A stretch of DNA of 64,000 nucleotides. It comes from Oidiodendron maius Zn (Eukaryota > Ascomycota > Leotiomycetes > Myxotrichaceae). The translations under genes were made by a program, and so were the position numbers. The stretch is from NCBI GenBank assembly GCA_000827325.1, contig KN832893.1:335576-399575 (forward strand). Reading direction: 5' to 3'. The notes under the pieces were generated by a model. The model saw only the letters and a list, made by a program, of their open reading frames with translations. It did no database searches and was not told the DNA's origin. Of the stretch, positions 43,866-64,000 are shown in pieces (positions within the stretch are counted from its first letter, which is position 1; each line of letters begins with the position of its first letter).

Positions 43866-44918
43866 TCAACCACGGAGCTTGATGAGAATAACCTGCAAGG
43901 CTAGTCTGAGCTTGGCCATGAAGGATAGGTGAGGCATGGTCGGACCCCAGGTCGTAAGTGTGTCGTGCATGTTGAATTCCTTAAAGGATGTCTCATCGTT
44001 GACAAGGTCACCGTCGGTATAGTGCTCCAGCACGAACCCGCTTTTATCGTGCCAGTAATCGAAGATCTGGCTGCCCGCTACATGCCTCCCGATACCCCAA
44101 TGGGGCTTGTATCCCTTTTTCTTGAGAAACTCGTGAGCGATATATTGCACATCGAAGTCGTTCAGCTCAAAGGCTGCATGATGCACTCCAACAGGTTGAA
44201 GCAGGTTCGCGGTGAGAAAGAAGGAGTGATGGTCCGTGAAGGCTTTGCCCTTATCAATATGCAGAAAGATAAAAAGCTGTTCCCTAGGCTTTAATGGATG
44301 AGTGACCTTGTCGCTCGGGATGAAGTTGAAATGCGTCGTATAGAAAGCTAACGCGTTCGGAAGGTCAGAGACGGCGAAGCCGCAGTGCCCAAGCTTGTGG
44401 ATAGGCGCCGGACCTAACTCTGGTCGTTGCATCTCCCCTCGGCGTGGCTTGCGAGTAGCGTTTTCATCACTCTCGGCAGGATAATTAAGTGGATGCATTT
44501 GTGGCGGAGGCTCTTTCCGTTCTACAAGCTTGTGCCCATAGATGACATGGAAGGGAATGCTCTCCGGGCCGTTGATGCTCACCCGCTCACCACCACCAGG
44601 CTGATGGGCCATACTTTCTCTCTTCTTGGCACCCGGCACATGTTCTGCCCGTTCAAGATCTGCCACGCTGCATACCTCGAAGGTCACGCCGAGGAAGACT
44701 GGTGAAGCTGTTTTCTCCACGACGTAGGTGAGCGGTAGGTCACCATAGCCACGGAAGAAGCGAGTTGGCACAGGAGTCTCTATGCTGCCAGCTTCCAGGA
44801 GCCCAAAGTCGCGCGCGAAGACTGATGCCTCATCTAAGTCATTGTGACCGTAGCTGACGTAGGCCGGACGGTTAAGCTGAACGCGATTCGCAGCGATATT
44901 TTTCATTTGTTCCGTCAT
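43866..44918 (-). CDS. Extradiol-type dioxygenase (vicinal oxygen chelate fold)
   Basis: A 350-residue single-exon gene of two tandem VOC/glyoxalase modules, the arrangement of type I extradiol dioxygenases such as catechol 2,3- and 2,3-dihydroxybiphenyl dioxygenases. Candidate metal ligands in the C-terminal module are His178 (HKLGHCGFAV), His246 or His247 (VGVHHAAFEL) and Glu298 (DKSGFVLEHYTDGD), the 2-His-1-Glu set for Fe(II). Such enzymes cleave a catechol ring next to the hydroxyls to give a 2-hydroxymuconic semialdehyde-type product. A hydrophobic patch (LRLALQVILIKLRG) ends the protein and may be a membrane-associated tail. It diverges from the FAH gene starting at 45398, 479 bp away. 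Ring cleavage by this family in fungi is uncommon, so the substrate is open. A role in another VOC reaction remains possible. Confidence 0.78.
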   Translation of the reverse strand: MTEQMKNIAANRVQLNRPAYVSYGHNDLDEASVFARDFGLLEAGSIETPVPTRFFRGYGDLPLTYVVEKTASPVFLGVTFEVCSVADLERAEHVPGAKKRESMAHQPGGGERVSINGPESIPFHVIYGHKLVERKEPPPQMHPLNYPAESDENATRKPRRGEMQRPELGPAPIHKLGHCGFAVSDLPNALAFYTTHFNFIPSDKVTHPLKPREQLFIFLHIDKGKAFTDHHSFFLTANLLQPVGVHHAAFELNDFDVQYIAHEFLKKKGYKPHWGIGRHVAGSQIFDYWHDKSGFVLEHYTDGDLVNDETSFKEFNMHDTLTTWGPTMPHLSFMAKLRLALQVILIKLRG

Positions 44919-45397
44919 GGCTCGAACGAGGTATACCTATGCAGAGAGGCTGACAGGATAAAATATATTTAATGGGATGCTTTGGACAACCGTTTATTGG
45001 TATGACTGCATGTTACAATCGGCAACCAGTTCATATTTGGGCAACATGTACTAGAAGCGGGGAAATGATACCATACAGAAATCTTGCCTGTCTTCTGCGG
45101 TGCCACCATCCGCCCGAAGACCATCTAACCGCATCCGAAAATCTGCGGACTATCTCTTTGTGAACGGCCGCAGTCTAAATTAACTGCCTAGAGTGGCATT
45201 AAGAGCAGGAATTGGACCCACAGAGCGGAGTAATTAACCTGTGGAGCGGAGGCTACATGTGTAGGAAACGCAGCACTGTCGTTGTCTGGTCGTGTAGCTA
45301 TTGATCTCTTCATAATACTGCGTAACTTTCACAGTTTAAAGCGGGAGGGGCTGGGTATCTCCACGTAAAACTCTCTCTACCCATTCTTCACTCTACC
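44919..45397. promoter_or_regulatory. Bidirectional promoter with paired GAGCGGAG
   Basis: 479 bp between divergent dioxygenase and FAH starts. GAGCGGAG occurs at 45223-45230 and again at 45244-45251, 21 bp apart (about two helical turns). CATCCGAAAATCTGCGGAC, a TCCG-N8-CGGA inverted pair, lies near 45134. Both contain CGG triplets, the usual core of Zn2Cys6 sites. Confidence 0.5.
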
Positions 45398-46647
45398 ATG
45401 CCTTCCTGGACTCATCTTATTCGCTTCGTAGCGGCTGAGGATGGGCAGCCGCATCTCGGACAGTTGGTTGACACAAGCCGTGATGTGGGCATGGATACTC
45501 TCGATGGCCGCAAGACGAAGGCTTTTCTGATTGTAGGGAGCATCTTCGACGGCGAGGTCACTGAAATAATCCTCACGGTCAAATATGTGAGACCCTTTCT
45601 GATGTAGAACATCGCCAGAGCTGACGTTGCCACTCACGCTGCAGTTGTTGTCCCCTGTCGACCGGGAATCCTGTAATTACATCCGTTGTGTTGGGCTGAA
45701 CTACAAGGACCACGCAGAGGTTAGTAGAGTTGAGTCGAATAGAGACGATATAAGATCTGAGGCGGCTAACTAGCAGCATTAAACTGCAGGAAACCAAGCT
45801 CCCAGTGCCCAATGTTCCAACCCTCTTCACCAAGCCACGCACTGCCCTCGTCGGGCCACATCCTGCGGTAATCAACATTCCCCGCTGTGCACAGGACGGT
45901 ACCAGCGACTACGAGTCCGAACTATGCGTTGTGATTGGCAAGACTGGCCGCGACATCCCAGAGGAGAACGCTCTTGAGTATGTGTTGGGATATACGGCGT
46001 CGAATGATGTGTCCGCACGAAAATTACAAATGCTGGGGCCGCAGTGGTGCTTCTCTAAAGGCCTCGATAGCAGCTGTCCTATCGGTGAGTATAACTTGCT
46101 CTAGTTACCCTTGGAACGTTGGGTTGATAGTAATGTGCCCCGTAGGACCCGTTCTCGTGTCGACATCAGTCATTCCAGATCCACAAACGCTCTCTATTCA
46201 GTGCATCCACAACGGTTCCGTCGTGCAGAACAGCCACACGAGGTCTGATTATTGCCCCTAAAAACCCAATATACAATTCCTGCTTGCGTCCAGCAGCTCA
46301 CGGGCTGATTAATGCGTTCACAGTGCTATGATATTTAGCATCCGGAAGCAAATCGCGTATTTCTCGCAAGGCACGACTCTCGAGGCTGGGACCCTCATTT
46401 TGACTGGTAAATCGATTCCATAACCCACTTGCGACCTTCAATCCATGTCCTATGCTCTGTTTCTTTGATACATCTTGTAGCTTTCGGCTGGTTGGCTAGT
46501 CTCAGGAAGTCACTGACAAAGTAGGTAGGCACACCAGCGGGGATCGGCTGCTTGTCCAAGCCACCCATTGTGCTGCAAGACGGGAGCAGCATCCGCGTGC
46601 ATGTCGAGATGATTGGCACGCTAGTCAACATGGTGCGATACGAGTAA
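45398..46647 (+). CDS. FAH-family hydrolase/isomerase
   Basis: Model join(45398..45586,45645..45719,45790..46084,46146..46242,46324..46406,46529..46647), 285 aa; all six exons in phase. Motifs: CVGLNYKDHAEETKLPVPN, TLFTKPRTALVGP, DYESELCVVIGKTGRD (metal-binding acidic residues), LEYVLGYTASNDVSARKLQ, QGTTLEAGTLILTGTPAGIG and RVHVEMIGTLVNMVRYE. This is the standard length and layout of the fumarylacetoacetase-like family, whose members hydrolyse or decarboxylate acylpyruvates, or isomerise hydroxyhepta-diene-dioates, in aromatic degradation. It shares a promoter with the extradiol dioxygenase, so it probably acts on the ring-fission product (inference). An intact gene; the last intron (46407-46528) is the longest. 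Confidence 0.88.
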
Positions 46648-47063
46648 AGTACAGAGGACGGAATTGCATTCCTAAATATAAATGCGGGTAGTGGGAGGTG
46701 AGAGGGGGTTTCCAGTGAGAAGCTCTGCAGATATCTTTAAATAAGAACCGATTCCTTTCTACGAACGAGTGGCACACTTGATAGAAGACTCGATGACATA
46801 ACATGCTCTCACCTGTCGGGCTCTTCCCAAACGTAGACCTATCTCTACTGTATCTAACCGTTCAGCAATCCTTGTCTATAAGGCTAGAGAAGAAACAACA
46901 GCGGCAAAATGGTCCAATATAGATCTCCAGTCTTACAGCTCTTATGTACAATACTAGTATTTACCCAGCCTACGATGCTCTTGCTTGTGCCACAACACAA
47001 AGAAATGAACATCCATAACCGATTCCATGATATATGTAGGCGCCCACAAGAGTGTTGAATGCT
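46648..47063. other. Convergent intergenic, no gene
   Basis: 416 bp between the 3' ends of the FAH gene and the monooxygenase gene. No coding sequence or repeat seen. Confidence 0.5.
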
Positions 47064-48921
47064 TTAACGCCTCGCTCTAGTCGTCTTGAACTCCTCTATG
47101 AGCCCGCGATAATCCTTTGCTGTATACGGTGCGAAGATTTCCCTAAGCGGATCTTTCTTCCGATGACTATTGAGCCCGAGATCTTTCAGCAGCAGGTCAA
47201 TGTACGGTAGCGCATCAATCATGAAATCAGGATTGCGGTTCCCAAAGCCAGCCGGGCTGCGCCACTTGCTGAACTCTGTATGCAGCGCGGTTTCCCACTC
47301 CATGGCGGAACTTTCATCCCAAGAGGCAGGGGCGGCGGATTTGTCCAGCCGCTTCGAGATCAGGGAGGAATGTATACGATCGGTAGTAGCTGCGGGAGTC
47401 GATGAGAGCTGGTCCGCAAAGAAGGCTGCAACCCATAGGGCCTGTGTTTGGGCGATTAGAGCAGTGCAACCTGTCTGGGTAGTACCGATAAACGCTATGG
47501 AATGCTCTTTAAAGAGAGGCGGTGGGACCAGGAACCGAGTAAGACGGAATGGGTGCGGCGCTGCGGCCTCGGCATCCTTTGAGAGCAGCTTGTAGTTGGC
47601 ACCAACTTGAGGTGGGCTCCGAAGGATTGGGAAACGGTACTTGATCTCTTCCGTGGCCTTCTCGAGTAGCTCCTTGTTAAGGATTTCGGGACTCCATGGA
47701 AGGCCGAGTTTGCTGTTTATAATCTCGGGCAGGAACTTCAAAGGAGGGGTACTCTTCCACCCAGTCGAGCAAACCAATGCGTCCGTGAGCAATGAGTTGC
47801 CAGTAGACAGATGGACGGTATGTGGGGAGAGCTTGATTATGTCGGCGATATGTATCCTGATGTTGCCGTTCTTGACTTGTTCAAAGAAGTCCGTAGGATA
47901 ATTCAAGATACTAACCGAAGAGGCCGCGTGGTACGATAGGTGCCAAGGCTTTAGCAGCTGTGTTTGATGGTGCTTGTCGTATCCATTCAATCGGATGAAG
48001 TGAGAATTCTGCATTTGACGGAGGGTATCGACGAGTTGACGACCGACCCATGTCTTGTGCAGTAATCTGCGCACCCAACCATACCCGTCTGCGTCGCCCC
48101 AGATGCAGGGGCTGAACCATGTCAGGAATCGTGTCATGAGCAATTTTTCGAGGCATATCTTAAAAGGGGTTGCGTGAGGGAACGTCATCCACACAGGCCC
48201 ATGTCCTGACTCTCGAATCACCCAATCTACTTGGACGCCTGAAGTTGCACACGCATATGCAACGTCCCAAGCGGATTTCGTGCCTCCAAACACCGTTACG
48301 CGCTTACCAGCCTGCAGTATCTCGTTCTCAAAGTCGACGAAATATCGACAGTGCAATAATGGTGCCTCAAACGCATCATGTCCGTCGAATTTAGGCATGT
48401 AAGGTTCGGAGGTCAATCCCGTGGCCACGATAAGCTTTTGTGTCGCGATCGATGAGGTAACAGGCGCCTCCTTTCCCCTCTGTATCGCTGTGACGATCCA
48501 CGTCCCGTCCACTTGGTGTTCCGCACTATCAACCTTACAATTGAGGCGGATCATGTCTGCCAATTTAAACTGTTCCACATAGTCCTCAAAGTAGCGGCTG
48601 ACGATGTGGCCCGGAATGTGACCCCCCGTCTTCACTCCGTAGGCTGACTTGTCCATAGGGAAGTCACTAAACTCGTAGTATCCCATGGTATTGTTGGTCT
48701 TTAGACCCTTATAGAGCCGATGCTTCGCCCAAACGCCGCCTACGTACGGCTCTGCCTCCAAAAGGACAACGCGGGCTGATGGATTGAGATCTAAATAGGT
48801 CTTTGCGGAAACGAGGCCGTGCCATCCTATTCGATTTAGGTAGTAAGCATTCAATGCCCACAATGGCAGTGGATTGGACAGCTATACCTGAGCCGATGAC
48901 GATCAGATCTACGCTTTCCAT
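47064..48921 (-). CDS. Flavin-dependent monooxygenase (FMO/Baeyer-Villiger type)
   Basis: Model complement(join(47064..48826,48888..48921)), 598 aa. The 61-bp intron falls within the Rossmann motif, which splicing completes to VDLIVIGSGWHGLVSAKTYL (FAD, GxGxxG near residue 10). A YVGGVWAKHR segment follows, the YEFSDFPMD block, a second nucleotide-binding motif VFGGTKSAWDVAYACATSG for NADPH, and the VCSTGWKSTPPLKFLP region. The C-terminal part (HSIAFIGTTQTGCTALIAQTQ) is typical of fungal FMO-like proteins of about 600 residues. The family inserts one oxygen atom into a C-H, N or S centre, or a ketone carbon in Baeyer-Villiger cases. The Baeyer-Villiger fingerprint FxGxxxHxxxW is not obvious, so a plain hydroxylating role is equally likely. 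It is divergent from the esterase gene, whose start lies 700 bp away. Confidence 0.85.
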
Positions 48922-49621
48922 TTGGGGCTCGGCAGTCGACTCTAAATCGAATTCACCACGAGACAGGTTAGGGAACAGGGTGGAGTTGTTTTTGTCATAA
49001 ATAAATGCGGCTGCTGCAAGTGAATATACATATATATGTCTGGTTACAGCTTCACAGATCGATTTTGGAGAAGACTACATGACTATATAAGACCAGCAGA
49101 TCGTATCTATCATAACACCGGCCGTGGCAGCGCGGCCTAGCTGGCAACCTTGCTGGCTCCATAATAGGAAAAATTGAAGGGCTAAACTTCCCGTACATTG
49201 TTGACATGTGATTGAATCGAAGTTTCGATATTACGCCGTAACTGCTAACGAGGTGGATAAATTCGAAGACTTGCCGCCTTCCAGATGCGCCGATGGCGGT
49301 AAATTTGCGGGAAGACGAATTCGGAGAATTATGTGGCTTTTGAGATAGTCCGCTGCCACAGTTCAATTACACCGCCTAGCTGAGCAGATGCCCTGGTCCG
49401 ACATACGGAGGCCACATGAGGTAATGCACTGAATTAGTCCCCGGAATAGCTGGCAATGTAATTATACCGCAGGCAAATACAAATCGGTAGGAAAGTAGAT
49501 GGACAAAACAGAACGATTAATATCCTCGACAGATTCCATGCTCCCTTCCATCAACCTGTTTGTAATCAATTTAAACCTAAACTTCGCTCATAGCAACTAA
49601 TATTTTCCGACAATTGTCGCG
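48922..49621. promoter_or_regulatory. Bidirectional upstream region with TCCG-N5-CGGA palindrome
   Basis: 700 bp between divergent monooxygenase and esterase starts. TCCGACATACGGA at about 49398-49410 is a TCCG-N5-CGGA inverted repeat, and a TTCGGAG occurs near 49319. No ORF of significance is seen in the interval. Confidence 0.4.
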
Positions 49622-50914
49622 ATGGCGCTTCCAATCCCAGAACTTGACCCAGAATGGGTGCAGCTCATCGAGCCGACCTTACCCAAAATGCCCCCAGCTG
49701 GATCCATTCCGATAGAACTAGCCCGGGGACTGATGGGAAAACTTGATGCAGCTAAGGTCCAATCACTCAATGAATCAATGCCTGATCTGAAAAAGGGCTT
49801 AAATATTAGCAACATCATGATTGCAATGAGGGATGGGGTGGAGCTCGAAATGAGAATTTTCAAACCTGAAAATGCAGCTTCTGTACCCGTGTATCTAGGG
49901 TACAGTTTCCTCATGATGTTCGCCTTGGAGTTACTGACTCGTCTATGCGAGCAGGTATCACGGCGGCGGTTGGTGTGCAGGCAGCAATGACTCAGAAGAA
50001 CTTATTAATCGCAAGATTTCGAAAACCCTTAATGTTGTCGTGTTCTCGATTGCTTATCGGCTCGCTCCTGAGAATCCTTTCCCTGTCCCATTTAATGATG
50101 CCGAGGATGGACTGAAATGGGTATGTTGATTCCTAGTCAATCACAACGGCTTTGAAGTATAGCTAAATCTGACTGCTATCTCATCATAGGTCTATGAGAA
50201 CGCATCTCGATTCGGCGCAGACGTCACAAAAGGGTTCGTTGTTGGAGGCACTTCATCGGGTGGCCATCTTTCTGCTATGGCGACCTTCCGGGCTAGAAAG
50301 CAGGGCATTCCCATAACCGGCTGTTTCTCTAGAGCGCCGATGGTTATGGACCGCACTACCGCTAAGGATAGCTGGAAAGAAACGCTTGATATCCTTCCTA
50401 AGGATGTCTACACGCCAATGCTGGATTGGGAAGCTTGTGTACGTCTCCCCATGTTGATTGATCCTCCGTCAAATAGAACTACTCATAGCCATTAACAACA
50501 CTACAGGAACTTTTCTATAGTAAGTCAGAAGAGTTTCCGTTCGTAGTAATATTTGCCTCTGATGATAGCAGAATATATGGCAATCCCCCCCGAAAGTCTC
50601 ACAGACCCTTCGAATTTCCCCATCTTTGCCGAATCATTCGAATTGTTTCCGAGAGCCTACATGCAGGTCCCCGGCCTGGATCCATTATCAGGCGAAGGGT
50701 TGCTATTCGAAAAAGTGCTGAGAGAGCACGGCGTTGAGACAAAATTAGACTATTACCCAGTACGTACGAGTATCTCCTTGCCTAGTCCTGGATCGGTGCT
50801 GACAGCTAGTGCAAGAATATGCCACACCCCTTTCATAACTTCCAGCAGCTGACAACGGCACGGAAGTCAGTGGAAGATGCAATGAGTGGACTGAGATGGC
50901 TGTTCCGACTTTGA
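49622..50914 (+). CDS. Alpha/beta hydrolase, hormone-sensitive-lipase-type esterase
   Basis: Model join(49622..49899,49955..50120,50190..50438,50507..50519,50572..50759,50810..50914), 332 aa, six exons in phase including a 13-bp microexon. The oxyanion-hole motif VYLGYHGGGWCAGSND, nucleophile motif FVVGGTSSGGHLSAM (Ser of GTSSG), acid-bearing QVPGLDPLSGEGLLFE and MPHPFHNFQQL (His) form the HSL/acetyl-esterase catalytic set. It hydrolyses carboxyl esters or lactones and is probably cytosolic, since no signal peptide is seen. With the FMO gene opposite, a lactone or ester formed by the monooxygenase is a plausible substrate (inference). Confidence 0.85.
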
Positions 50915-51871: not shown

Positions 51872-54393
51872 ATGGCCTCTATCAACCAATCCACGATATC
51901 TTACACTCGTGTTCTCGCATGCGAGAACTGCAGGCAGTACGATCCCGCCAGTGCTGCGTTGCCCAGTAATCCCCATATAACTAAAAGACATCAGGCTGAT
52001 CTTTGAGTGTTTGAACACATAGACGCAAGAGAAAATGTAAGATCTTCTCGTCTCCAGTGCTATTCCGACGTCCAGAGCTTTTACTCTAGCTTACACTGTG
52101 TCTTCTGCGCTACTCAGGCGACACAAGAAAACCCGAATGCCAGTTGTGCAGACGCTCAGGAATTCAATGCACATACCCTCGCTACTCCACCAAACCTGGC
52201 CCAAAGAGAAAATCGCGATATAAAGACGCCTCACATGGAGAGTACAAAACATCTACAACAGGGCAATTCTCTCTTCACGATCCTTCTGGTCCTCTACATC
52301 TAGAATCAGCGACCAGTATAGGTGTTACAGGCGAGAGCGATGAGCACACCAATAGGCGCGATAGTTGGATCGGGAGGTCAGATTTACCACACGACTCTAC
52401 TATGTCTAATAGGTCTCTCATGAGAAGCTTCGAACCGCCATTCGCTTTCGGTAATGCTTTACCCGCGCCAGGGGACATGTTGGAAGATTTGCTATTTTGT
52501 CGCTCGGGCAATCTGTTCTCTCCCGCTCAGGATTCTCTGAGTGGCCTTCTCCTTCCTCCCATAGAGGTTATTGAACACCTCGTTGATGTCTTCTTCGTGG
52601 CTGTTCAGCCCCAGTTCCGGCTACTCCATCGACCATCTCTGACCCGGCAACTTCAAGACCCCTTTTACCCACTTAGAGGAGGATCAACACTTCTTTTAAA
52701 TGCAGTCTTTGCTCTTTCTGCTCGGTACTCAGACGATATGCGCGTAGAATTATTCGATATGTCACTCATAAAGGCATTTGAGCGAAAGTCACAGCGAACC
52801 AACATGTGCTACCGAAGTATGAGGCATTATGAGCGAGGCAAAGGCTTCGCGCAACTAGCAAACAAGTTGCTCCAAGATAAAATCTCCGAAGACATAAATG
52901 AACTAGTGCCTGGAGAGATAGATGAACAATCTATTCAGGTGCTCCAAGCGATTGCATTACTGGGTTATGCTGAGCTGGGAGCGGGGATAAGCCGCCAGGC
53001 TCATTATTTGATTTCAACATGCGCACGTATGTCATATGATTTAAGATTACACGAAACAGACCGTGAAGAATACCGAAACTTATTTATGGCAACCGCAAAT
53101 TTGGTCGAGAGTGATTGGATTAGAAAAGAAGAACTTCGCCGCCTATGGTGGTGCATCTGGGACTTGGATAATTTCATCTGCACTGCCACATGCCGACCTC
53201 GAATGATGCGCACATTTAAATGCCAGACAAAGCTTCCTGCTAGTGACAAGGATTGGTTTGATGGGTGTGAAGTTCCGTCAGGATTTTTAGCTGGTGATTT
53301 ACAACGATTGACCCAATCTCTAAAAGGTCCCCCCTTGTCATCAGCGATGGCTTACCGGATCGTGTCTTGCCACCTCCTTGCAATGTTAATTGACACTTTA
53401 GACAGTGAAAGCCCCAATGATGTAGGCGACTCGATTTCCGCCATTGAAGATTGTGCTACAGCCTGGAAAGAAAACCTGCCAAATGAATTCAGACCTGTAA
53501 TGGACACGCAACACCTCCTTGAACAGTCTGAAGTCTTGAGCGATTCAATTCCAATGTATATCGAATACGAATTGTGAGCATATCTGACTCTGGCAAAACA
53601 TGTCGTGGTATAAATAGCTAATCACTATGATAGGATAAGGCTGCTCTTGGGAAAGTCACGAATGGTTCAAGACGCGAATGCAGAAACCATTTCAAGCTAC
53701 TGTCAATGCTTTTCTAAGCAAAGTCTAGGGACTTCTCGCATAGAAAATGACAATGAATCGATACTGCCAGGCGCTCAGGCGTTTTCTGATGCACTGTCGG
53801 CGTCCAACGCTATCTGTGCTATTGTACGCGACTGGCCAGCCAATTCCATCATACGAACTTCTCCATTCGTCATCTGTGGTTTATTTGTGCCAGCTACTAT
53901 TCAAGTTCTGGCTAAGACGTTTTCTGGTCGTTCCAGTAACTTCGCAGAGAAAGCGTCAGCCTCGCTTCAGAGTTTGGTAATGACCATAGAGCACACGGCG
54001 GAATACTGGGGTCTCTGTCGATGTATACTCGGTATGTGAAGTACTATTGAGCTTTCTGGCCCAAACGCCATTATGTGCTGATAGCTAGCGTTAGAGAGTT
54101 TTTGTGCGTACGAGAAGAAAGTAACCAACAATTGCGCTCTTTTAGCCGAGGATTGTGATGATGACCCTTTCTCCTTCGCAGCTAAACGGATACTTTCGTT
54201 TCCTGCCCTTGTGGACAAAGATTCATATCTGAGGAGAGGGGCGCTCTCTGGTAATGAGTTGGAATCTGAATTGGACACGGGCCCTCTCAATGCAAGTGTT
54301 GGGTCAACATTACCTGGCGATGACAATTATCTTGAGCTTGAAATGAGGTTAGACAGTGGTATAAATGATCTTGATTACAGTTGGATAGAGTGA
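51872..54393 (+). CDS. Zn2Cys6 transcription factor (fungal-trans type), second
   Basis: Model join(51872..51936,52023..52036,52118..53573,53634..54031,54146..54393), 726 aa. The zinc cluster is assembled over three exons, including a 14-bp exon: CENCRQRKRKC-DTRKPECQLC-RRSGIQC, spacing C-x2-C-x6-C-x6-C-x2-C-x6-C. The middle homology region shows LHRPSLTRQLQDPF, LLNAVFALSARYSDD, ALLGYAELGAGISRQAHYL and the RRLWWCIWDLDNFICTATCR block with downstream DCDDDPFSF. The C-terminus is acidic (LELEMRLDSGINDLDYSWIE), a possible activation domain. It sits in the centre of the ring-cleavage island, so it is the best candidate for its pathway-specific regulator (inference). Its own promoter carries repeated CTCCGTTTCC. 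Confidence 0.88.
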
Positions 54394-55255: not shown

Positions 55256-56836
55256 ATGTCAACATCTGAAGAATCACTACAAACCCATCCTCCACTTTTC
55301 GACGAGGAATATTCGCACCTCGACGCAGCAATCGACGTTGATACGTTCAATAAAACAAGCGTCTATAATGTGCCTGGGTACAAACCGGTGCATGTTGAAC
55401 TCACTCATATTGTTGCTCGAGTAACTGGAGAATTGCCTAGCGATTTGGATGGAGTATATCTGCGAAATGGGACCAATGTTCAGTTTGAACGAACATTTCA
55501 ACGTTTGCATGCATTCAATGGTGCAGGAATGATACATCAGATTCAAATAAAAAATGGAATGGCAACATATTCAAATTTTTATATCCGCACCCCGAGATTC
55601 GAGGTAGAGAGACAAGCCGGTCGTGAGGTTTTTACAAGTATCGGTGATGTTGCTGGCGGGGGTCGAGCAACATTGGAAAAGATGAAGCTGCTTCAAAAAA
55701 AGATACAAGCTGGGAAGATCCCTGCGCTCTCCCCACTTGAGCTTACTACGGGATCAACATCAATTCGATATCATGCTGGGCGAATTTACTGTCTCAACGA
55801 AGCAGGGTATGCATTTGTCCTGAATGCCACTTTTAAGGATGAACGACTCTTCTTCGATGGAACCGGCAAGCTCGAAGACTGGAGTGGAGAATGGGACGGA
55901 CCATTTTCGGCACATCCTCGTTTCGACCCAGATAATGGTGACATGTATAATCTCAGCGTCGACCTTAACGGTCGTGTCTTAGCTGGTCGAATAACACAAG
56001 GATTACGACATTCTCAAGCAGCTCTGCACCAGTTTCCATCTAAAGGAGGGATTGGCTGGTTGCACGACTTTATCCTCACCGAAAACTACCTTGTATTCCC
56101 AGATATCTCCATGCGTCGTAACTTTTCACTTCTGTCAGAGGACAAAAGCATCTTCTACTTTGACAAGGATTATCCCTTGCGGTGGGGGGTATTGCCACGA
56201 TATTTCAAGGAAGGCGATGCAGTGCAATGGTTTACAACAAAGGAGGCCAACACGATTTGGCACGTCATCAACGGGTGGGAACGTGTTAGAGAGGATGGCG
56301 GCAAAGAAATAGTACTTTATTCTCCGGCTTTCCAGTGGTATCCACCGGACCTTCCCATCCACACGCCAGAAGAGCCGCCTGCGCGAGTTCTAAAATGGGT
56401 CCTAGACTTGGAAGCTGGTAAGGTTTCGGAAGAGACTTTGCTGATTGACCACGGCTATGAACGCCCTTCCCTGAATCTCGCAAAAGTTTCGAAACCAAGC
56501 CAATTTTGCTACCTTCTTGATGAACACGGGGACGGCTATATGGGAAAGGGAGTTCTGAAGTATGATCTTCTCCGGGAGAAAGAGGTTAGTTATTTGGACT
56601 ATGGGGATATGTATGGCGGGGAAGCACTATTTGTTCCGAAAGCAAATGCGATTCGTGAGGATGATGGGTATCTCTTGGATCTTCTTATGGCAGAAGACAA
56701 GGCCGATCTTCTTGTTATAGATGCTAGGAGCATGACTGAACTTGCTCGCATTCATCTTCCACAGCGAGTTCCTTTTGGCGTACATGCAGTTTGGCTGGAC
56801 CAAGATGACCTCGCTGCAGTGAAGCGAGCTTTATGA
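55256..56836 (+). CDS. Carotenoid-cleavage-type dioxygenase (RPE65/CCD family)
   Basis: A 526-residue single-exon gene. The start at 55256 (MSTSEESLQTHPP) is preferred; an upstream in-frame ATG at 55151 would add 35 residues with no family support. CCD enzymes are seven-bladed propellers in which four histidines hold a non-haem Fe(II). Candidates are AHPRFDP (about 220), WLHDFIL (about 270), TIWHVINGWE (about 337) and FGVHAVWL (about 510). Other family blocks are GVYLRNGTN, FNGAGMIHQI, GEALFVP and the C-terminal LPQRVPFGVHAVW. Lignostilbene- and resveratrol-cleaving relatives cut the central double bond of stilbenes, and others cut carotenoids. The surrounding aromatic-type genes favour a stilbene or related phenylpropanoid substrate (inference). 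Confidence 0.85.
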   Translation: MSTSEESLQTHPPLFDEEYSHLDAAIDVDTFNKTSVYNVPGYKPVHVELTHIVARVTGELPSDLDGVYLRNGTNVQFERTFQRLHAFNGAGMIHQIQIKNGMATYSNFYIRTPRFEVERQAGREVFTSIGDVAGGGRATLEKMKLLQKKIQAGKIPALSPLELTTGSTSIRYHAGRIYCLNEAGYAFVLNATFKDERLFFDGTGKLEDWSGEWDGPFSAHPRFDPDNGDMYNLSVDLNGRVLAGRITQGLRHSQAALHQFPSKGGIGWLHDFILTENYLVFPDISMRRNFSLLSEDKSIFYFDKDYPLRWGVLPRYFKEGDAVQWFTTKEANTIWHVINGWERVREDGGKEIVLYSPAFQWYPPDLPIHTPEEPPARVLKWVLDLEAGKVSEETLLIDHGYERPSLNLAKVSKPSQFCYLLDEHGDGYMGKGVLKYDLLREKEVSYLDYGDMYGGEALFVPKANAIREDDGYLLDLLMAEDKADLLVIDARSMTELARIHLPQRVPFGVHAVWLDQDDLAAVKRAL

Positions 56837-57373
56837 TTTCTACCTGCACGGCTGAAACCTAGCAGTCCTCTCTTAGTTAAGTGCGACTAATATTGAAATT
56901 AAATGTAATTCCATAACTGCACGATATCCTGGTCCCTATTCATGCTGTAGGTACCATCGAACTGAGAGTATCGCCCTGCCTTTACGCTGGTTTTAATTCG
57001 CCGTCGAAGCCACTCTTTGTCTTTCCCAGCGCATTCATGGCATGACAGCGCTAAAGGCGTTGGGCTTGGAACGCGACAAATTTTACATAAGAATGCGTAA
57101 CAGCGACAGCTCTGTGTGAAGGGTGGAGCAGTAAAGGCCGAGGAAAGATTATGCTTATGTGCTCCGTCAAGTACGGTAAGACTCCACACATGTTAGTGGT
57201 GATGGTAGTGTGTTTGAGTTGAGTTGTGTTGGCATTAACGTGACTTATGAGGGGCTAAGAAAATGCTCTGGCATAAGAAGCACTTAGCGTATGCGATAAG
57301 GCATAACGGTTAAGCATAAGATTTAGCTGGGCCTTGTCCGAAGTAAGTAAATCACAGGAACTAAGCAGTAAGA
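56837..57373. other. Convergent intergenic, no gene
   Basis: About 540 bp between the CCD and P450 3' ends. A minus-strand frame at 56899-57189 lies here but has no family similarity, and its composition suggests chance. Confidence 0.45.
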
Positions 57374-59143
57374 TTAATTACATTGTCTTGCTCGCTCCTC
57401 TCCTTCCTTTTCGATTGAGTCCCAAAATGCTACGTGAACGCCCGCCACCGGCGAGAGCACAATATCTGTCTTCATAACTGGCGTATGAGAAATCTCAGGG
57501 GACATACGATTCTCTATGCGGTCGAAATGCTGCATTAGTCGAACGATGGTATAACCCATCTCAGCCAGCGCGAATTGCTGGCCGATGCAGATGCGAGGGC
57601 CGCCGTTGAATGGGATGTACATCCATGAAGGTGGTTGCCAGGTAGTCCACCGGTCTGGATTGAAGTTAGTTGGGGCAAGGGAAGGGTCATTCGCAAAGGA
57701 TGGAGGATATAAGTCTGGTCGACGCTGCATGAGTAGTGTGCTGAAAGCGATAGCCGTGTCCTTTAGGACCCCGATTGGTGCCCGGCCATCCAGCCCGCCA
57801 CCACGAGGCAAAGTTGTGTCGCGTAGGGAGAAGCGGACATTAAATGGGACGCCTGGATAAATGCGAAGGGTCTCGTTCATAGTATTTTGCAGGTACTTCA
57901 TGCTTTTCAGATGTGCGTAGGTCGGAGGCGTCATTAGCCCTACGGTGGCGGCAATCTCAGCACGCAGCTTCGTCACGACTTCGGGATGCTTTGCCAGCTC
58001 GTAGAATGTCCAAGAGAGTGTTGAGGCTGTGGTATCACGTCCAGCCAGAAGGATAGCAATTAATTGATCACGCAGGGTGTGGCGGTCACGCGTAAATCCC
58101 GCCAGCGCGTGCAGGAAGGTATAGTCTCTGTCTGACTTCGTGTGCATCTCGAGCTCTGCGGGTGACAAGCGGAGGGTCTCTTCAATATAGGGATTTACAA
58201 ACTCATCCATGACCTTAAGAGAGGCACGGTACGATTTCCGTGAGAGGAGACGATTTAGGGGTTTCCTGTGGCTGCGCGTCAGTAGTTTTCTCTACATTAT
58301 AATGTTAAGGCGTACCCTGTTCGCACATATAGGATCTGTAGCCTCTGAGCCTCAGCAAAGGCCACTGCAAAAGGTTGCGATGGGGTCACTAGGCTGTCTA
58401 CGCTGCCACCTAGCAAGAAATCTGTAGCGGCGTCGAGCGTGTAACGGAAGAAGAGGTCGCTGATATCAACAGTCCGGCCCTGCCCGATGCCATCGACGGC
58501 TGTGCCAGGGGTTCCTGCGACACCGCCGTTTGCAATGGCCTCAATCAGAAGTTTGACGTGCGTTTCGAAAGTATGCAAGTTGCTAACCCGATCTTTGATG
58601 AACAACGGCCGGATCAGCTGCCGGCTCGCGTGCCAGAGGTCACCGTCGGTGGCGAAGATGCTCTCGCCGAGGAACTCTTTCCACTCCTCGTAGAATGGTT
58701 TGCCTCTTCCGTAGTCTTGGAACTGCGTTGCTAGGATGGCCTTGATGTTTTCAGGGTCGGATGTGAGTATCAAACGCCGGCCGCTAGGGCTGGTCTCGAT
58801 GGTATCCACCATACGCCCGTCACGCAGTGAGACGTCGGCAAAGAAGGTTCGCCATCCTTCGAATTCATTGTGTAGGATGGAATTACGCAGTGATGTGGCT
58901 ATAAAGCCAAGACCTAGCAAGTAGAAAGGTTAGTCTGGAAGATAAGGAGCAGAGCAGTGAATGTATACCAAAGGGGAATCGGGTTTTCAATTTAGGTGCA
59001 TGCCCACCAAGTTTCTGGATCTTGAGCTCGGCCGTTATCCATCTACCTAGAGTCACGGCAGCAAAGACACCAAGGGTCACGAGAGTAGTGGTCTTTAAAG
59101 AGAGTTGGTTCAAGACGTTGCCCATCACTATTGCCAACTCCAT
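57374..59143 (-). CDS. Cytochrome P450, CYP52-like
   Basis: Model complement(join(57374..58265,58316..58913,58969..59143)), 554 aa. Both introns close in phase. The N-terminus has a membrane anchor (LVTLGVFAAVTLG). Later features are WHASRQLIRPLFIKDRVSNL (C-helix), LIAILLAGRDTTASTLSWTF (I-helix with the oxygen-binding RDTT), NETLRIYPGVPFNVRF (ExxR), and the haem loop PFNGGPRICIGQQFALAEMG. The FNGGPRICIGQQ signature with an RDTTA I-helix is typical of the CYP52/539/584 group, which hydroxylates fatty acids and alkanes at the omega end, but members with aromatic substrates exist. It acts at the ER with an NADPH reductase. A TCCGAG-N9-CTCGGA palindrome lies about 185 bp before the start. Complete. 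Confidence 0.87.
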
Positions 59144-59777
59144 CGTGGTAAAATATAGGTGATTGTGATAGTATTGCGATTGGGAGACCAGTCCGTCTCA
59201 TTTAGCACAACCTTATAGCCTCGAATCAGTGATGTTATTAATGAAGGTAGTAGCTTTGCTAAGACTCGCTGTCATATTTGTATCTTCTAAAGCACATTAT
59301 ACGGACTGTCTTTTCGGGCCGAGGCATCCGAGATTCCCAAGCTCGGAATTCCTACCATAATATAGGCTATGTGATGTTGGAGGTGGGAGTTTAGTGAGCT
59401 TTCATGCTGACGGCAAGTGTTTACGCGTAGGTTTAGGAATCTCATTTTCTGTGCGTAACCTAAATATCAACAAGTGATCAAATATAACGAAAATGATGAC
59501 AAGGTTATCTATCAGTTAATCACATGATAACACAGCACCACATACTAGGCCCAGAACAGGGCAATATACTAGATGGGTCGACATACTCGACTGATCAGTA
59601 TCTTGGAGCGCTTGCATCAGTTGTCTCTAGCAAGCTATCTAGAAGTGGCGTGTGGATTGCTAAGTACAAAATTGCTCGCCTTTTGAGAGCCGTGGAGCCG
59701 GTATACAATGTGAGTCTTGTGCTCACATCGAATAACACTTTGTTTCCACTTGGGATATGTATCGGCCCAATGTAGGC
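59144..59777. promoter_or_regulatory. Upstream region of the P450 gene with TCCGAG palindrome
   Basis: About 630 bp. TCCGAG at 59327-59332 and CTCGGA at 59342-59347 make a TCCGAG-N9-CTCGGA palindrome. A short plus-strand frame from 59524 is not credible as a gene. The decarboxylase gene ends at 59778. Confidence 0.5.
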
Positions 59778-60800
59778 CTACCTCAACCTAGGAAAAACTC
59801 CCAAGGCATTTCTCAGATAAACCTTCGATCGCGTCTCGTCATCCGTCAGATACGCATCAAGACCCTTGGCCAACGGAATGGTAGCAACTGGTGGAGCGAA
59901 CGGGAAATCGCTTCCGTACATAATATGATCGCTAGGGAAGTTTGGTAGCAGCGTATCAAGGGTATGAGAAGTGCTAGACAGGGCGAGGTCGAAGTATAAT
60001 CTTTTAGCATCTTCGATGATATCTTCAGTCGTTGCCGTCTTTAAGCCTGAGAAGCTCGGCAAAAGGCTTGCAGCACGACCGACCACGAACGGTAAGTTTC
60101 CTCCAGCGTGGGAGAGGATCATCTTAACGTCAGGATATAAGCGTACAGTGCCACTGATGATCATATCCAATGCTGTCTTGGTCGTCTCATGTGGAAAATC
60201 CAGGACTGGGGCAGAGAGGTATTCATTCACAGGGTTATTTTCTATAGAAGGGCCCGGATGGATAAAGACGACTGCCTTGCGGGCATTTAGAGCGGCCCAA
60301 ATTGGCTTGAAGTCTGCATGACCCAGATACTTCTTGCCATAACGAGTCATTAGTAACACTCCATCAGCATGCAACGTGTCGAAGGCGTATTTAATCTCTT
60401 CTAGCACAACTTCAACTGACGATAGCGACGGAACGGTAGCAAAGAAACCGAACCGAGAAGGATATGTATCACGCACACCTGCAGCGTATGTATTGGCCTG
60501 TCGCGCAATGGCTTTACTGTCTTCTTCCCCTTCGTGGAGGAATATGTTGGGAAAAGAGAGGATTGCAGTTTGTGTGCCCACTGTATCCATATAATCTATG
60601 CTGAGTTGAGGACTCCATGGAGGGAGCTTGAAATTGGAGATCTTGACAACTAGATGATACAAAAGAGGATAGTTAGCTTCTCGTCCAATACAAGTTGAAA
60701 GGAAAGTTGAGACTGATGGAAGATTGTTGACCTTACATTTTGCTGCATACGCTGGAGGGATAAAGTGGTGATGGACGTCAATTTTAGTTGGGTAGGCCAT
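59778..60800 (-). CDS. Amidohydrolase-2 family decarboxylase
   Basis: Model complement(join(59778..60649,60737..60800)), 311 aa. The 87-bp insertion between AAK and KISNFKLPPW has GT-AG ends and is a multiple of three, so an unspliced 340-residue reading is also open. The start MAYPTKIDVHHHFIPP at 60800 is preferred to 60860. Metal-binding signatures of the ACMSD and 2,3-dihydroxybenzoate decarboxylase family are present: DVHHHFIPP, VVFIHPGPS, KMILSHAGGNLP and IMYGSDFPFAPP. These TIM-barrel enzymes decarboxylate aromatic acids, or ring-fission semialdehydes, without redox cofactors. It could feed a phenol or catechol into the pathway, or act after ring cleavage. Divergent from the second FAH gene. 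Confidence 0.83.
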   Translation of the reverse strand: MAYPTKIDVHHHFIPPAYAAKCKVNNLPSVSTFLSTCIGREANYPLLYHLVVKISNFKLPPWSPQLSIDYMDTVGTQTAILSFPNIFLHEGEEDSKAIARQANTYAAGVRDTYPSRFGFFATVPSLSSVEVVLEEIKYAFDTLHADGVLLMTRYGKKYLGHADFKPIWAALNARKAVVFIHPGPSIENNPVNEYLSAPVLDFPHETTKTALDMIISGTVRLYPDVKMILSHAGGNLPFVVGRAASLLPSFSGLKTATTEDIIEDAKRLYFDLALSSTSHTLDTLLPNFPSDHIMYGSDFPFAPPVATIPLAKGLDAYLTDDETRSKVYLRNALGVFPRLR

Positions 60801-61487
60801 TTTGAGATTTCGTTTGTGTAACGGTGGAGATTGGTCTAGAAATGGGACAAGAAAGCTCATCTCCCTTCATATAGAGGCTACAAACCCAGGAAGCAGTTAA
60901 TTGAATAACGAAAAGTAAAACAATTGCCCAATTCTGGTCATTCATATCCAGCTGATCGGGGCTTCGGATATAAAGGTTCCGGCCGCCGTGACAAAGGCCA
61001 GCAAATTTGCTTGTGTCCGTGGGAGTGAGTACATGTGGTTATTTTGTATTTAACTCTGTGGTTAAGCTTTCAGTTCGCTTGTTAGAATCTATTAACTTGG
61101 ACTGAGATAAATTCAATAAAAGTGAAATACAATCCCCATAACTACATTTGCATATCTTATCTAATCCTGAATTTGGACAGTGCTGCTATTCACTGTGGCT
61201 ATTAGTGATCAAAATTTAGCAAACCAGGCAAAAAATCCCTTTTTGGGTCGTGTGTTGTTGCGTAATGAAAAGACATTAGTATAAGGTGGCCGGTTTGACG
61301 GTTTCCGTTACGCCCATTCTCCGGAGCGGTTTCGGTCCGAGCAGGTCCGAGTCAATAAACACTGCTAATTGACAGGCGTGATATTCTAATTGATACGACG
61401 TGCTTGCCTTTCCTATGTAATAAATAAACCCCCGAATATAAATTCATTTCGTCATCTGCCGATTTTGATCACTTCAATACTGAGAAT
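60801..61487. promoter_or_regulatory. Bidirectional promoter with tandem GGTCCGAG
   Basis: 687 bp between divergent decarboxylase and FAH starts. GGTCCGAG occurs at 61334-61341 and 61344-61351, exactly 10 bp apart. CTCCGGAGCGG lies just upstream (about 61319-61329). The cluster contains several CGG/CCG triplets within 35 bp, typical of Zn2Cys6 operators. Confidence 0.55.
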
Positions 61488-62604
61488 ATGCATACCGCAT
61501 TTGATCGACTTGTCCGCTTCGCTAATAACGATGGGCAAACCTTTTATGGGGAAGCACCGCCGCTAGCCTTTGACCCCTCCAGCCTAATCGGCGAGAAAGT
61601 GCCTGTCTTTGAAGGTGGCGAGCCTTGGAGCCCAGCGTTTAAGCTCAGTGGTAAAACCCAAACCATTGCTAAGGTAAAAGATTCGGCTTAATAGGCGTTT
61701 GCCAAGTTTAGGCATTTGGTCTACCGCGCGGATTTCAGCAGCTAATAGGTGAATGCGAGAAATAGATTCTCTCGCCTATTCCTCACACGCCCATCTATCA
61801 CTGTGTTGGATTAAATTATCGGCAACACATTGTAGAGTCTAAGGTGCGTTTAAACAACTCTGATTAATATCTAAACTCGGCACACTCAAATTATAAATAG
61901 AATCCAATGCCAAAACATCCTGCCTTATTCAATAAGCCATCTGGTATAAAGCCGAGTATTAATTTATTGATATTTGCTAAGTAAATGCCTCTAGACGCGC
62001 TTGCCGGACCCCTCGACGATATATCGATTCAAAAAGAAGCCTACGGACTAGATTACGAGGTATATACGCATGTGCTATGACTTTGAGTCGTATTTTGATA
62101 AATTCTAAATAATATTTATAGGGCGAGCTTTGTATAGTCATTGGAAAAGACATCAAGGGCCTCGCGAAGGACGAGGACCCACTAGACTATGTTCTTGGCT
62201 ATACAGTAGGAAACGACTTTACTTCTCGATACTGGCAAGACCCAAAGCTTTCAAGCTATCAAGCTGGATACGCAAAGTCATTTGATGGATTTGGCCCAAT
62301 CGGCCCTTTCATAGTGTCCACTAAAGTGGTACCACATCCTGGAGAGCTACAACTCACAGTGAGAGTGAACAGCGAGCAGAGACAACAAGCTAACACTAAT
62401 GATTTGGTCTTTGACATCAAGGAAATAATTAAGTTTTTAGCTAGAGGACGTACTATTCGAGTAGGAACCATCATAATGACCGGAACCCCGAGTGGTGTTG
62501 GTGCTTTTTTGACGCCTCCTAGCTTTTTAAAGCATGGAGATGTCGTAATGGTTGAGATCGAGAAAATAGGTATCATCAAGAATAGAGTCATATTTCAAGG
62601 GTAA
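61488..62604 (+). CDS. FAH-family hydrolase/isomerase, second copy
   Basis: Model join(61488..61673,61766..61843,61901..61943,61995..62059,62122..62604), 284 aa, five exons in phase. Blocks: FDRLVRFANNDGQTFYGEAP, IPHTPIYHCVGLNYRQHIVE, KPSDALAGPLDDI, DYEGELCIVIGKDIKGLAKD (metal-binding acidic residues), LGYTVGNDFTSRYWQDPK, QAGYAKSFDGFGPIGPFIV and GTIIMTGTPSGVGAF. Same family and length as the FAH protein at 45398-46647 but clearly diverged and with another exon pattern, so the two are ancient paralogues rather than a recent duplication. Other family members hydrolyse acylpyruvates or decarboxylate oxalocrotonate. Its promoter is shared with the decarboxylase. Confidence 0.87.
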
Positions 62605-63031
62605 AAGATTTTTTACTCATCTTAACATGTCATTTAATATATGTGGATTATATTTAAATATACAATTAGATGAGACTCCAGAATTGATGACAATTGACCA
62701 CCAGATTAAAATGCTCACTGCGTGTATCTTGCGCTTTTGCCAATCACAATAATTTAGACGTCCGAGATATTCTATATTTCGTCTTGTTTGAAAAGATAGC
62801 CCTCTCAGCCCTCCCTATGGAGCTATTTCACTACCTCAGCTCTGCAATCCAGCCCTAAAATATGTACGTCAAGTTGTGTCAAGCACGAGAGTAGCATTAC
62901 GAAAGCTGCACTTCTCTAATATATTAAATTCCGAAGTCTCGTTTAAATCTGTGTTCAAATTCAATGTGGCATAAATTTTTCTCGTACTTTGCCAGCAAAT
63001 GTCTAGTAATTTACTGGAACATTTGTGCTAC
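62605..63031. other. Convergent intergenic, no gene
   Basis: About 430 bp of AT-rich sequence between the 3' ends of two genes. Nothing recognised. Confidence 0.5.
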
Positions 63032-64000
63032 CTAGCGTGCTTCACGTTCACGCGCTAGTTCACCCAAGCTCAAAAGCTTTCGTGGTAAATCCATTTTCTC
63101 AAAGAAAACTTCTAAAAGTTGTATACAGTCTGATTTCTGGAAATCTTCGTTGAGGAGGACCTTGGATAGTTCTGCGTAAGTCCTTGCGGTGTAGCTTCGA
63201 GACTTGGGAGCGCCGAAGAAGGACAAGATCTTTTGGTGGTCCCACAGTGTGGATATGTCGTTGTACTGTTGCTCTGGACCGTGGATGAATCGCTCAATCG
63301 TGTATCCTGCATTATTGACCACGATAATTGTAGGGGTGAACCCCTCACGGATTATTGTACCAATCTCTTGTACGGTCAGTTGCAGACTTCCATCACCTAT
63401 AAGTAGAATGGCCCGACCACTAAGACCCAAACTCTTACGTGCCAGAAGCGCGCCAAGAAGAGCTGGGACCGTGAAGCCGATGCTGCCAAAGTAGAACTGA
63501 CTGAAGTATTGTACTTCATTAGGTAACTTAAACTCTAGAGAACCAAATTGAGCCGTGCCAACTTCTGCGATCACGCAGTCACCAGGCTGAAGGTACATAT
63601 TCATCCGAGCCCAAAATCTTGCGTGGTCTAGGGGATCGTTCGACTGGTCAATTTCGAGATTCTATTTGTCATTATTAATGTTACTTCATAAACTTAAGAT
63701 GAGCCAGGGACGAAGCCGTACATTAATAGTCTTTGGTAATGGTAAGGAAGACTTGGCCTTGCGTTGACAAGGATGCTGGCTAAAGTGAAGCACCAGCTTC
63801 TCCACCACAGGCCTAAAATGGAGACTTTCCCACGACTTATTCCCTATTGAACAATAGCCGGGATGCAACTTGACTGACTTCTCAGTGGGGATGTTGTTGG
63901 AGAAGCCACCCGTGTTCGACGATGTGGGGAATGGCCCAAGATGAAGCATAAAGTCGTGCCCCTCCGCACAAGCCCGTACTTCCGGGCTGCTCGACATAAC
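63032..64000 (-). CDS. TPP-dependent 2-oxo acid decarboxylase, C-terminal part
   Basis: Truncated by the window edge. Exons seen: complement(63032..63661) and complement(63722..64000 and beyond), with an in-phase 60-bp intron (GTACGG...AATAG). The C-terminal TPP-binding domain is clear: GDCVIAEVGTAQFGS, the ILLIGDGSLQLTVQEIGTII segment (GDG of the GDGx24-27NN motif), IIVVNNAGYTIERFIHG and YNDISTLWDHQKI. This is the pyruvate/phenylpyruvate/indolepyruvate decarboxylase subfamily, which releases CO2 from 2-oxo acids to give aldehydes. The catalytic N-terminal part lies outside. It is the natural last step of a meta-cleavage route in which FAH hydrolysis yields 2-oxo acids, though a general fermentative pyruvate decarboxylase is the alternative. 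Confidence 0.82.

What the first reader, a model, noticed from the sequence alone, without database searches (positions are those of the whole stretch)
43866..64000. Candidate fungal meta-cleavage aromatic catabolic island
Nine enzyme genes and one Zn2Cys6 regulator lie together with no unrelated intact gene between them: extradiol-type dioxygenase, two FAH-family hydrolases, FMO, HSL esterase, CCD-type dioxygenase, CYP52-like P450, amidohydrolase-2 decarboxylase and a TPP 2-oxo acid decarboxylase. Known families supply a coherent route: side-chain or stilbene-type cleavage, oxidation, decarboxylation to a catechol, extradiol ring opening, hydrolysis of the fission product, then 2-oxo acid decarboxylation. 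Extradiol cleavage linked to FAH genes is a bacterial-style arrangement and is uncommon in fungi. The ring substrate and the order of steps are inference.
Basis: partly seen in the sequence, partly recalled or inferred. Interest (0 to 1): 0.78.

Follow-up and report, generated by a model that had tools for sequence, protein, structure and literature searches.

The report
Fungal ring-opening catabolic gene cluster
A fungus carries, side by side, an intact set of genes that looks built to break open an aromatic ring in the way bacteria usually do, a route rarely described in fungi; which compound it acts on is still unknown.

Summary
From 43866 to the window end lie nine enzyme genes (the last cut by the edge) and one Zn2Cys6 regulator. 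Every complete gene reads intact with GT-AG introns, and Pfam confirms each family. An MFS transporter at 41007-42586 may belong too.

The central claim is strengthened. The VOC protein has the type I extradiol catalytic set, invariant in 36 aligned sequences, and its predicted fold matches catechol 2,3-dioxygenase. Its bacterial relatives sit next to FAH hydrolases: 55 of 80 loci within 3 kb, 22 per 100 kb beside the VOC gene against 1.6 farther out. The amidohydrolase's bacterial relatives show this link only weakly.

The stilbene step is not supported: the oxygenase lacks the lysine of lignostilbene dioxygenase and is nearer carotenoid 9,10-dioxygenase. The decarboxylase may act after ring opening. 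Transfer of a whole bacterial operon is not supported.

Best reading: a fungal degradative gene cluster with an extradiol-FAH core, substrate unknown. No fungal genomes could be searched, so synteny and co-expression stay untested.

The parts
41007..42586 (+).
   Evidence: gene model; Pfam MFS_1 3.6e-40; membership in the island is inferred from position only
43866..44918 (-). VOC / type I extradiol ring-cleavage dioxygenase, 350 aa, no intron
   Evidence: Pfam Glyoxalase; its four NCBIfam hits are all extradiol dioxygenases, below cut-off; H178, H231, H247, H279, Y288, E298 invariant in 36 sequences; AlphaFold2 pLDDT 89.6; Foldseek to catechol 2,3-dioxygenase
45398..46647 (+). FAH-family hydrolase 1, 285 aa, divergent from the VOC gene across 479 bp
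   Evidence: Pfam 1.2e-62; PDB relatives include HpcE-type proteins and L-2,4-diketo-3-deoxyrhamnonate hydrolase
47064..48921 (-). flavin-containing monooxygenase, 598 aa
   Evidence: FMO-like 4.2e-12; only weak PDB matches, best 8e-12
49622..50914 (+). HSL-type alpha/beta hydrolase (esterase), 331 aa, 5 introns
   Evidence: Abhydrolase_3 6.2e-45
51872..54393 (+). Zn2Cys6 transcription factor, 745 aa, probable pathway regulator
   Evidence: Zn_clus and Fungal_trans
55256..56836 (+). carotenoid-cleavage-dioxygenase family (RPE65) oxygenase, 526 aa, no intron; iron ligands H220, H270, H336, H510 present; N181 at the lysine position of lignostilbene dioxygenase
57374..59143 (-). cytochrome P450, 556 aa
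   Evidence: p450 1.7e-55
59778..60800 (-). amidohydrolase-2 family (ACMSD-like) probable decarboxylase, 311 aa
   Evidence: Pfam; nearest named PDB enzymes isoorotate decarboxylase and ACMSD
61488..62604 (+). FAH-family hydrolase 2, 284 aa, 4 introns
   Evidence: Pfam 3.7e-65; PDB; groups with FAH1 in the tree (85/94, long branches)
63026..64000 (-). thiamine-pyrophosphate 2-oxo acid decarboxylase, C-terminal part only; cut by the window end
   Evidence: TPP_enzyme_C 5.3e-15; NCBIfam indolepyruvate decarboxylase 8.6e-56, below cut-off

Best explanation
The island is a fungal degradative gene cluster for an aromatic compound, under a local Zn2Cys6 regulator and perhaps with its own MFS importer. 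Oxygenases (FMO, P450, possibly the CCD) and the esterase prepare the ring. The VOC enzyme opens a di- or trihydroxylated ring by extradiol (meta-type) oxygenation. Because FAH-family hydrolases often cleave acylpyruvate or beta-diketo acids (recalled), the ring-opened product is probably of that kind, as from a hydroquinone or trihydroxybenzene, rather than the simple muconic semialdehyde of catechol. The amidohydrolase-2 enzyme removes CO2 either from the aromatic acid or from the ring-opened acid, and the TPP enzyme decarboxylates a released 2-oxo acid. Shown here: intact genes, families, extradiol catalytic residues and predicted fold, and the recurrent VOC-FAH pairing in bacteria. Inferred: co-regulation, order of steps, the acylpyruvate chemistry. 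Unknown: the substrate.
For: Intact models and families. VOC: full catalytic set invariant in 36 sequences; model pLDDT 89.6, pTM 0.87; the top 50 Foldseek matches (E 7e-23 to 3e-18) include catechol 2,3-dioxygenase 1mpy (TMq 0.70, rmsd 5.6), LapB, AphC and homoprotocatechuate dioxygenase. VOC-FAH pairing: 55 of 80 bacterial loci within 3 kb; 52 FAH matches in 236 kb at 0-1.5 kb (22 per 100 kb) against 19 in 1188 kb beyond (1.6 per 100 kb); 8 of 8 plasmid neighbourhoods that I picked from 125 records, at up to about 7 kb. The VOC-linked FAHs fall in several FAH lineages (at least 10 label changes), which points to functional coupling. Amidohydrolase relatives: FAH in 6 of 9 and VOC in 2 of 9 fetched stretches. 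A published parallel: in the ipp cluster an assayed extradiol dioxygenase, ippB, lies next to an FAH-like gene, orf2564 (PMC12442392, passages).
Against: No fungal relatives, expression data or chemistry were available. No shared promoter motif beyond shuffles in six promoter regions. Near the bacterial VOC genes, CCD and TPP relatives were found in 0 of 80 loci, P450 in 2, FMO and MFS in 3 each, amidohydrolase in 4 and esterase in 6, so only the VOC-FAH core has good outside support as a unit. The amidohydrolase-FAH link is weak: about 2.7 FAH genes would be expected in the 166 kb fetched at the outer density, against 6 seen. In the ipp paper the dioxygenase is 211 aa, shorter than ours, and the authors' proposed route gives the FAH-like gene no step. 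GC3 varies from 0.41 (CCD) to 0.63 (FAH1), which fits stepwise assembly or chance neighbours. Of 30 high-scoring bacterial FAH1 loci, 4 have a VOC neighbour.
Confidence: 0.6

Rival explanations
1. Only part of the island is one pathway: an extradiol-FAH core, perhaps with the amidohydrolase, while CCD, P450, FMO and esterase belong to a neighbouring apocarotenoid or terpenoid route or are chance neighbours.
For: CCD nearest carotenoid 9,10-dioxygenase; CCD in 0 of 80 and P450 in 2 of 80 bacterial VOC loci; unequal GC3; no shared promoter motif.
Against: All genes are packed at 416-957 bp spacing round one Zn2Cys6 gene; bacteria are a poor guide to which fungal oxygenases join a cluster.
Confidence: 0.27
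2. One reading: the CCD cleaves a stilbene, the aldehyde is oxidised and decarboxylated to a catechol, which the VOC enzyme then opens.
For: CCD family membership and four iron histidines; stilbene dioxygenase is one of 13 core genes used to find fungal degradative clusters (PMC10735191, passages).
Against: Asn181 at the lysine of lignostilbene dioxygenase, and no clear counterpart of the partner tyrosine (the role of these residues is recalled, not read); closer to carotenoid 9,10-dioxygenase; no aldehyde dehydrogenase among the eleven genes scanned.
Confidence: 0.1
3. A tailoring cluster of secondary metabolism rather than catabolism.
For: P450, FMO and a regulator are common in such clusters (recalled).
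Against: No polyketide, peptide or terpene synthase family among the eleven genes scanned; two FAH hydrolases and an extradiol dioxygenase are catabolic families.
Confidence: 0.05
4. The core came into the fungus as one bacterial operon.
Against: The two fungal FAH proteins group with each other and not inside a VOC-linked bacterial clade; FAH1 has five introns and FAH2 four; VOC identity to the aligned bacterial proteins is only 30-39%; the CCD gene also lacks introns.
Confidence: 0.08

Closest known systems
Fungal degradative gene clusters (Gluck-Thaler and Slot 2018, known here only through PMC10735191)
   Same: Clustered catabolic enzymes in fungi, found by core genes that include stilbene dioxygenase and aromatic ring-opening dioxygenase.
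   Different: A type I (VOC) extradiol enzyme with two FAH hydrolases and an amidohydrolase-2 enzyme; I could not see whether any published class has this make-up.
Bacterial extradiol-FAH neighbourhoods, e.g. the ipp cluster of Rhodococcus sp. D-6 (PMC12442392)
   Same: Extradiol dioxygenase next to an FAH-like gene, with a flavin monooxygenase that hydroxylates the phenol first.
   Different: IppB is 211 aa, ours 350; the FAH-like gene has no step in the authors' route. No CCD or TPP relative near any of 80 bacterial VOC genes; the fungal FAH proteins are not inside the VOC-linked bacterial clades.
Fusarium verticillioides FVEG_03387-FVEG_03405, partly induced by 2-benzoxazolinone (PMC10512309, Table 1)
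   Same: RPE65-family gene, FAH hydrolase, FAD enzyme, fungal regulators, transporters and a decarboxylase in one stretch.
   Different: No extradiol dioxygenase is listed; its decarboxylase is UbiD; its RPE65 gene was not induced. Sequences were not compared.

Membership tests
Type I extradiol dioxygenase | 2-His-1-Glu iron ligands plus catalytic His and conserved second-shell His and Tyr | tested here: met
   H178, H247, E298 (metal), H231 (catalytic), H279, Y288; H178, H231 and H247 fall on H145, H194 and H209 of BphC 1dhy in the alignment; all six invariant in 36 sequences; letters checked. Residue roles are recalled.
Type I extradiol dioxygenase | two-domain VOC fold as in catechol 2,3-dioxygenase | tested here: met
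   AlphaFold2 model; Foldseek 1mpy E 2.7e-21, TMq 0.70, rmsd 5.6
Type I extradiol dioxygenase | opens a dihydroxylated ring | not testable with these tools
   needs enzyme assay
NCBIfam equivalogs BphC, HpaD, catechol 2,3-dioxygenase, HsaC | score above the curated cut-off | tested here: not met
   40.2 of 366, 33.3 of 321, 31.4 of 320, 21.5 of 450 bits; the substrate cannot be read off these
FAH superfamily hydrolase (both genes) | complete FAA_hydrolase domain | tested here: met
   Pfam 211.8 and 220.0 bits against a cut-off of 23.9
Stilbene-cleaving oxygenase (CAO1, LSD, NOV type) | four iron-binding histidines | tested here: met
   H220, H270, H336, H510 align with LSD 6ojr
Stilbene-cleaving oxygenase (CAO1, LSD, NOV type) | lysine and tyrosine that hold the phenol (LSD Lys134/Tyr101, CAO1 Lys164/Tyr133; recalled) | tested here: not met
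   Asn181 at the LSD lysine column; the tyrosine column falls on a Gly beside a 7-residue insertion; the tyrosine alignment is uncertain. CAO1 itself was not seen aligned.
Aromatic-acid decarboxylase of amidohydrolase-2 | closest solved relatives are these enzymes | tested here: not met
   uncharacterised 2f6k 103 bits, isoorotate decarboxylase 82, ACMSD 78; 5-carboxyvanillate 46, gamma-resorcylate 44, 2,3-dihydroxybenzoate 39, salicylate decarboxylase 24
Fungal degradative gene cluster | conserved neighbourhood in several fungi | not testable with these tools
   the collections searched hold prokaryote genomes and plasmids, no fungal genomes
Fungal degradative gene cluster | shared promoter motif or co-expression | tested here: inconclusive
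   no k-mer or dyad beyond shuffles in six promoter regions; expression not available

The most novel reading that the evidence does not exclude
A complete eukaryotic meta-cleavage pathway: the fungus has assembled, on its own, the extradiol dioxygenase - FAH hydrolase pair seen in bacteria, added an amidohydrolase decarboxylase, fungal P450, FMO and carotenoid-oxygenase-type enzymes and a Zn2Cys6 switch, and uses it on a plant aromatic or aromatised terpenoid whose breakdown in fungi is unknown.
Probability: 0.3. Interest if true: 0.72.

Novelty: new variant of a known kind. Interest (0 to 1): 0.5.

Why it matters
[quoted passage not shown] An intact fungal cluster with an extradiol-type enzyme beside FAH hydrolases gives a concrete set of genes on which fungal meta-cleavage could be shown or ruled out, and might explain how some fungi consume or detoxify plant phenolics.

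Tried and rejected
Stilbene route: lowered after the residue check. Bacterial operon transfer: tested with FAH1's bacterial matches (VOC beside it in 4 of 30 loci, each about 3.6 kb or less, one per genome) and a tree; not supported. The tree used 45 of 69 VOC-linked and 45 of 77 other FAH fragments, and the two fungal rows are long branches whose joining may be false. Shared regulator site: six promoter regions, 7-9-mers and gapped dyads, no excess over shuffles. RIP-like indices were printed and not pursued. Own-genome search: no genome held. VOC in 198 genomes of the phylum of L085's genome, that genome included: 24 with a match, 5 of them at E below 1e-30. Papers: ten searches; two searches found nothing; no fungal VOC-FAH cluster appeared in the titles and abstracts listed or the passages read, though the library lacks most subscription papers and Gluck-Thaler and Slot 2018 is not held. 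Of papers opened I saw passages (PMC10735191, PMC8120277, PMC12442392, PMC7356986, PMC9304392, PMC10512348, PMC5133782, PMC3091685, PMC5716253) and, for PMC10512309, passages and section 9, part 1. PMC7356986 was checked as an extradiol-FAH precedent and rejected as a VOC one: its ring-opening enzyme is of the amidohydrolase family.

Relatives were sought by tblastn at 1e-6 with the fungal proteins, so weakly conserved families such as FMO may be missed. The eight plasmid neighbourhoods were hand-picked from 125 records. For the amidohydrolase I fetched 9 of 19 places in 299 genomes (those with E below 1e-30), one cut by a contig end. Of four plasmid amidohydrolase loci, L162 has a relative of the window VOC and FAH genes, but I picked it because its record was also in the VOC list; L159 has a gene annotated VOC that gives no tblastn match to ours at 1e-4; L160 and L161 have neither.
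Full report
What is there. The stretch 43866-64000 holds nine enzyme genes and a Zn2Cys6 regulator, the last enzyme gene running off the window. I rebuilt each gene from the sequence. All complete ones read through with GT-AG introns and no internal stop, with two slightly unusual introns (a 44-nt one in the P450, an AAG acceptor in the esterase). Pfam confirms every family. Neighbours are 416-957 bp apart; I saw no other gene between them in the ORF list, though ORFs in the gaps were not scanned with Pfam. An MFS transporter gene lies just outside, 1279 bp from the VOC gene. GC3 varies between genes from 0.41 to 0.63.

The ring-opening enzyme. Its four NCBIfam hits are all extradiol dioxygenases, though far below the cut-offs. 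Its PDB matches by sequence are weak and include BphC (4.6e-4 and 7.2e-4); the best, 3b59 (6.6e-7), is named glyoxalase/bleomycin resistance protein/dioxygenase. Nine sequences and then 36 (the window, 30 of the 80 genome loci and 5 of the 8 plasmid loci) show H178, H231, H247, H279, Y288 and E298 invariant; H178, H231 and H247 fall on the BphC residues H145, H194 and H209, whose roles I recall. A 31-row AlphaFold2 model has pLDDT 89.6 and pTM 0.87. Foldseek ranks 3b59 first, then catechol 2,3-dioxygenase, LapB, AphC, dihydroxybiphenyl and homoprotocatechuate dioxygenases, at TM-scores near 0.7. It is a type I extradiol dioxygenase by fold and residues; activity and substrate are untested.

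The partner genes in bacteria. No fungal collection was available, so I asked what this enzyme keeps company with in bacteria. In 80 loci (the best of 585 confirmed) an FAH-family match lies within 3 kb of the VOC gene in 55, and anywhere in the fetched DNA in 65. There are 52 matches in 236 kb at 0-1.5 kb (22 per 100 kb) and 19 in 1188 kb beyond (1.6 per 100 kb; 0.4 to 3.3 by bin), an internal control. Eight chosen plasmid neighbourhoods all have an annotated FAH gene within about 7 kb. The other families of the island are rare near VOC: HSL 6, AMH 4, FMO 3, MFS 3, P450 2, CCD 0 and TPP 0 of 80 loci.

The amidohydrolase. In 299 genomes, 16 have a match at 1e-15, 19 places in all. Of the 9 places fetched, 6 have an FAH gene and 2 a VOC gene in the stretch. 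At the outer density about 2.7 FAH genes would be expected in these 166 kb, so the excess is weak. One stretch, L164, has VOC, FAH and amidohydrolase, with two frames that look like FAD monooxygenases between them (my reading of the first residues). Of four plasmid loci looked at, L162 has VOC and FAH relatives (I picked it because its record was in the VOC list), L159 an annotated VOC gene that does not match ours by tblastn, and two have neither.

Origin. Of 30 high-scoring FAH1 loci from 299 genomes, 4 have a VOC match beside them. In a tree of 92 FAH rows the two fungal proteins group together (85/94) and not inside a VOC-linked bacterial clade, while VOC-linked bacterial FAHs fall in several lineages, with at least 10 label changes. 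So bacteria seem to have paired the two families repeatedly, and there is no sign that the fungal pair arrived as one operon. Long branches limit this.

The first step. The CCD has the four iron histidines but is closer to carotenoid 9,10-dioxygenase (169 bits) than to lignostilbene dioxygenase (98-101) or CAO1 chains (94-98). At the column of lignostilbene dioxygenase's lysine it has Asn181; the paired tyrosine has no clear counterpart. The function of those residues is from memory, and one search found no held paper on them. A stilbene substrate is therefore unlikely though not excluded.

Decarboxylation and hydrolysis. The amidohydrolase's nearest named relatives are isoorotate decarboxylase (82 bits) and ACMSD (78), ahead of 5-carboxyvanillate (46), gamma-resorcylate (44), 2,3-dihydroxybenzoate (39) and salicylate (24) decarboxylases. 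ACMSD decarboxylates a ring-opened extradiol product (recalled), so the step may follow ring opening. FAH1 and FAH2 have HpcE-type and diketo-acid hydrolases among their nearest PDB relatives. From general knowledge of that family I infer an acylpyruvate-like product, which favours a hydroquinone or trihydroxylated ring. The ipp cluster offers a partial parallel: an extradiol dioxygenase gene next to an FAH-like gene, opening 2-isopropylhydroquinone; but that dioxygenase is only 211 aa and the authors' route gives the FAH-like gene no step (PMC12442392, passages).

Known background. Fungal degradative gene clusters are a described kind (PMC10735191, passages). A Fusarium stretch partly induced by benzoxazolinone carries RPE65, FAH, FAD, regulator, transporter and UbiD genes but no listed extradiol enzyme (PMC10512309, section 9 part 1). 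[quoted passage not shown] niger and older evidence for extradiol gallate cleavage in A. flavus (PMC10512348, passages). Others list extradiol-type genes in Grosmannia and Scedosporium by annotation (passages). My ten paper searches surfaced no fungal VOC-FAH cluster in what I saw.

Verdict. The stilbene route, the order of steps and the unity of all ten genes are not established.

Noticed in passing
33813-37764 (-): A hydantoinase/5-oxoprolinase-type gene: Hydantoinase_A and Hydantoinase_B domains in two overlapping frames, probably joined by an intron near 35.8 kb; not modelled.
   Followed up: partly
38045-40328 (-): Frames that look by eye like a second fungal transcription factor next to the MFS gene; the three pieces tested gave no Pfam hit.
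   Followed up: partly
3804-8324 (-): Long frames resembling a Copia-type retroelement polyprotein by eye; the two larger pieces tested gave no Pfam hit.
   Followed up: partly
31930-33084 (+): C-terminal part of a glycoside hydrolase family 3 enzyme.
   Followed up: no
12423-13715 (+): A second cytochrome P450 gene, outside the island.
   Followed up: no
14735-16706 (-): Three overlapping frames, perhaps one gene with introns; no Pfam match for any piece.
   Followed up: no
L004, L006, L007, L008: Some bacterial relatives of the VOC enzyme sit with cytosine-permease and RidA genes (L004, L007), quinol-monooxygenase genes (L006) or molybdenum-hydroxylase and RidA genes (L008) as well as FAH; some of these may act on N-heterocycles.
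   Followed up: no
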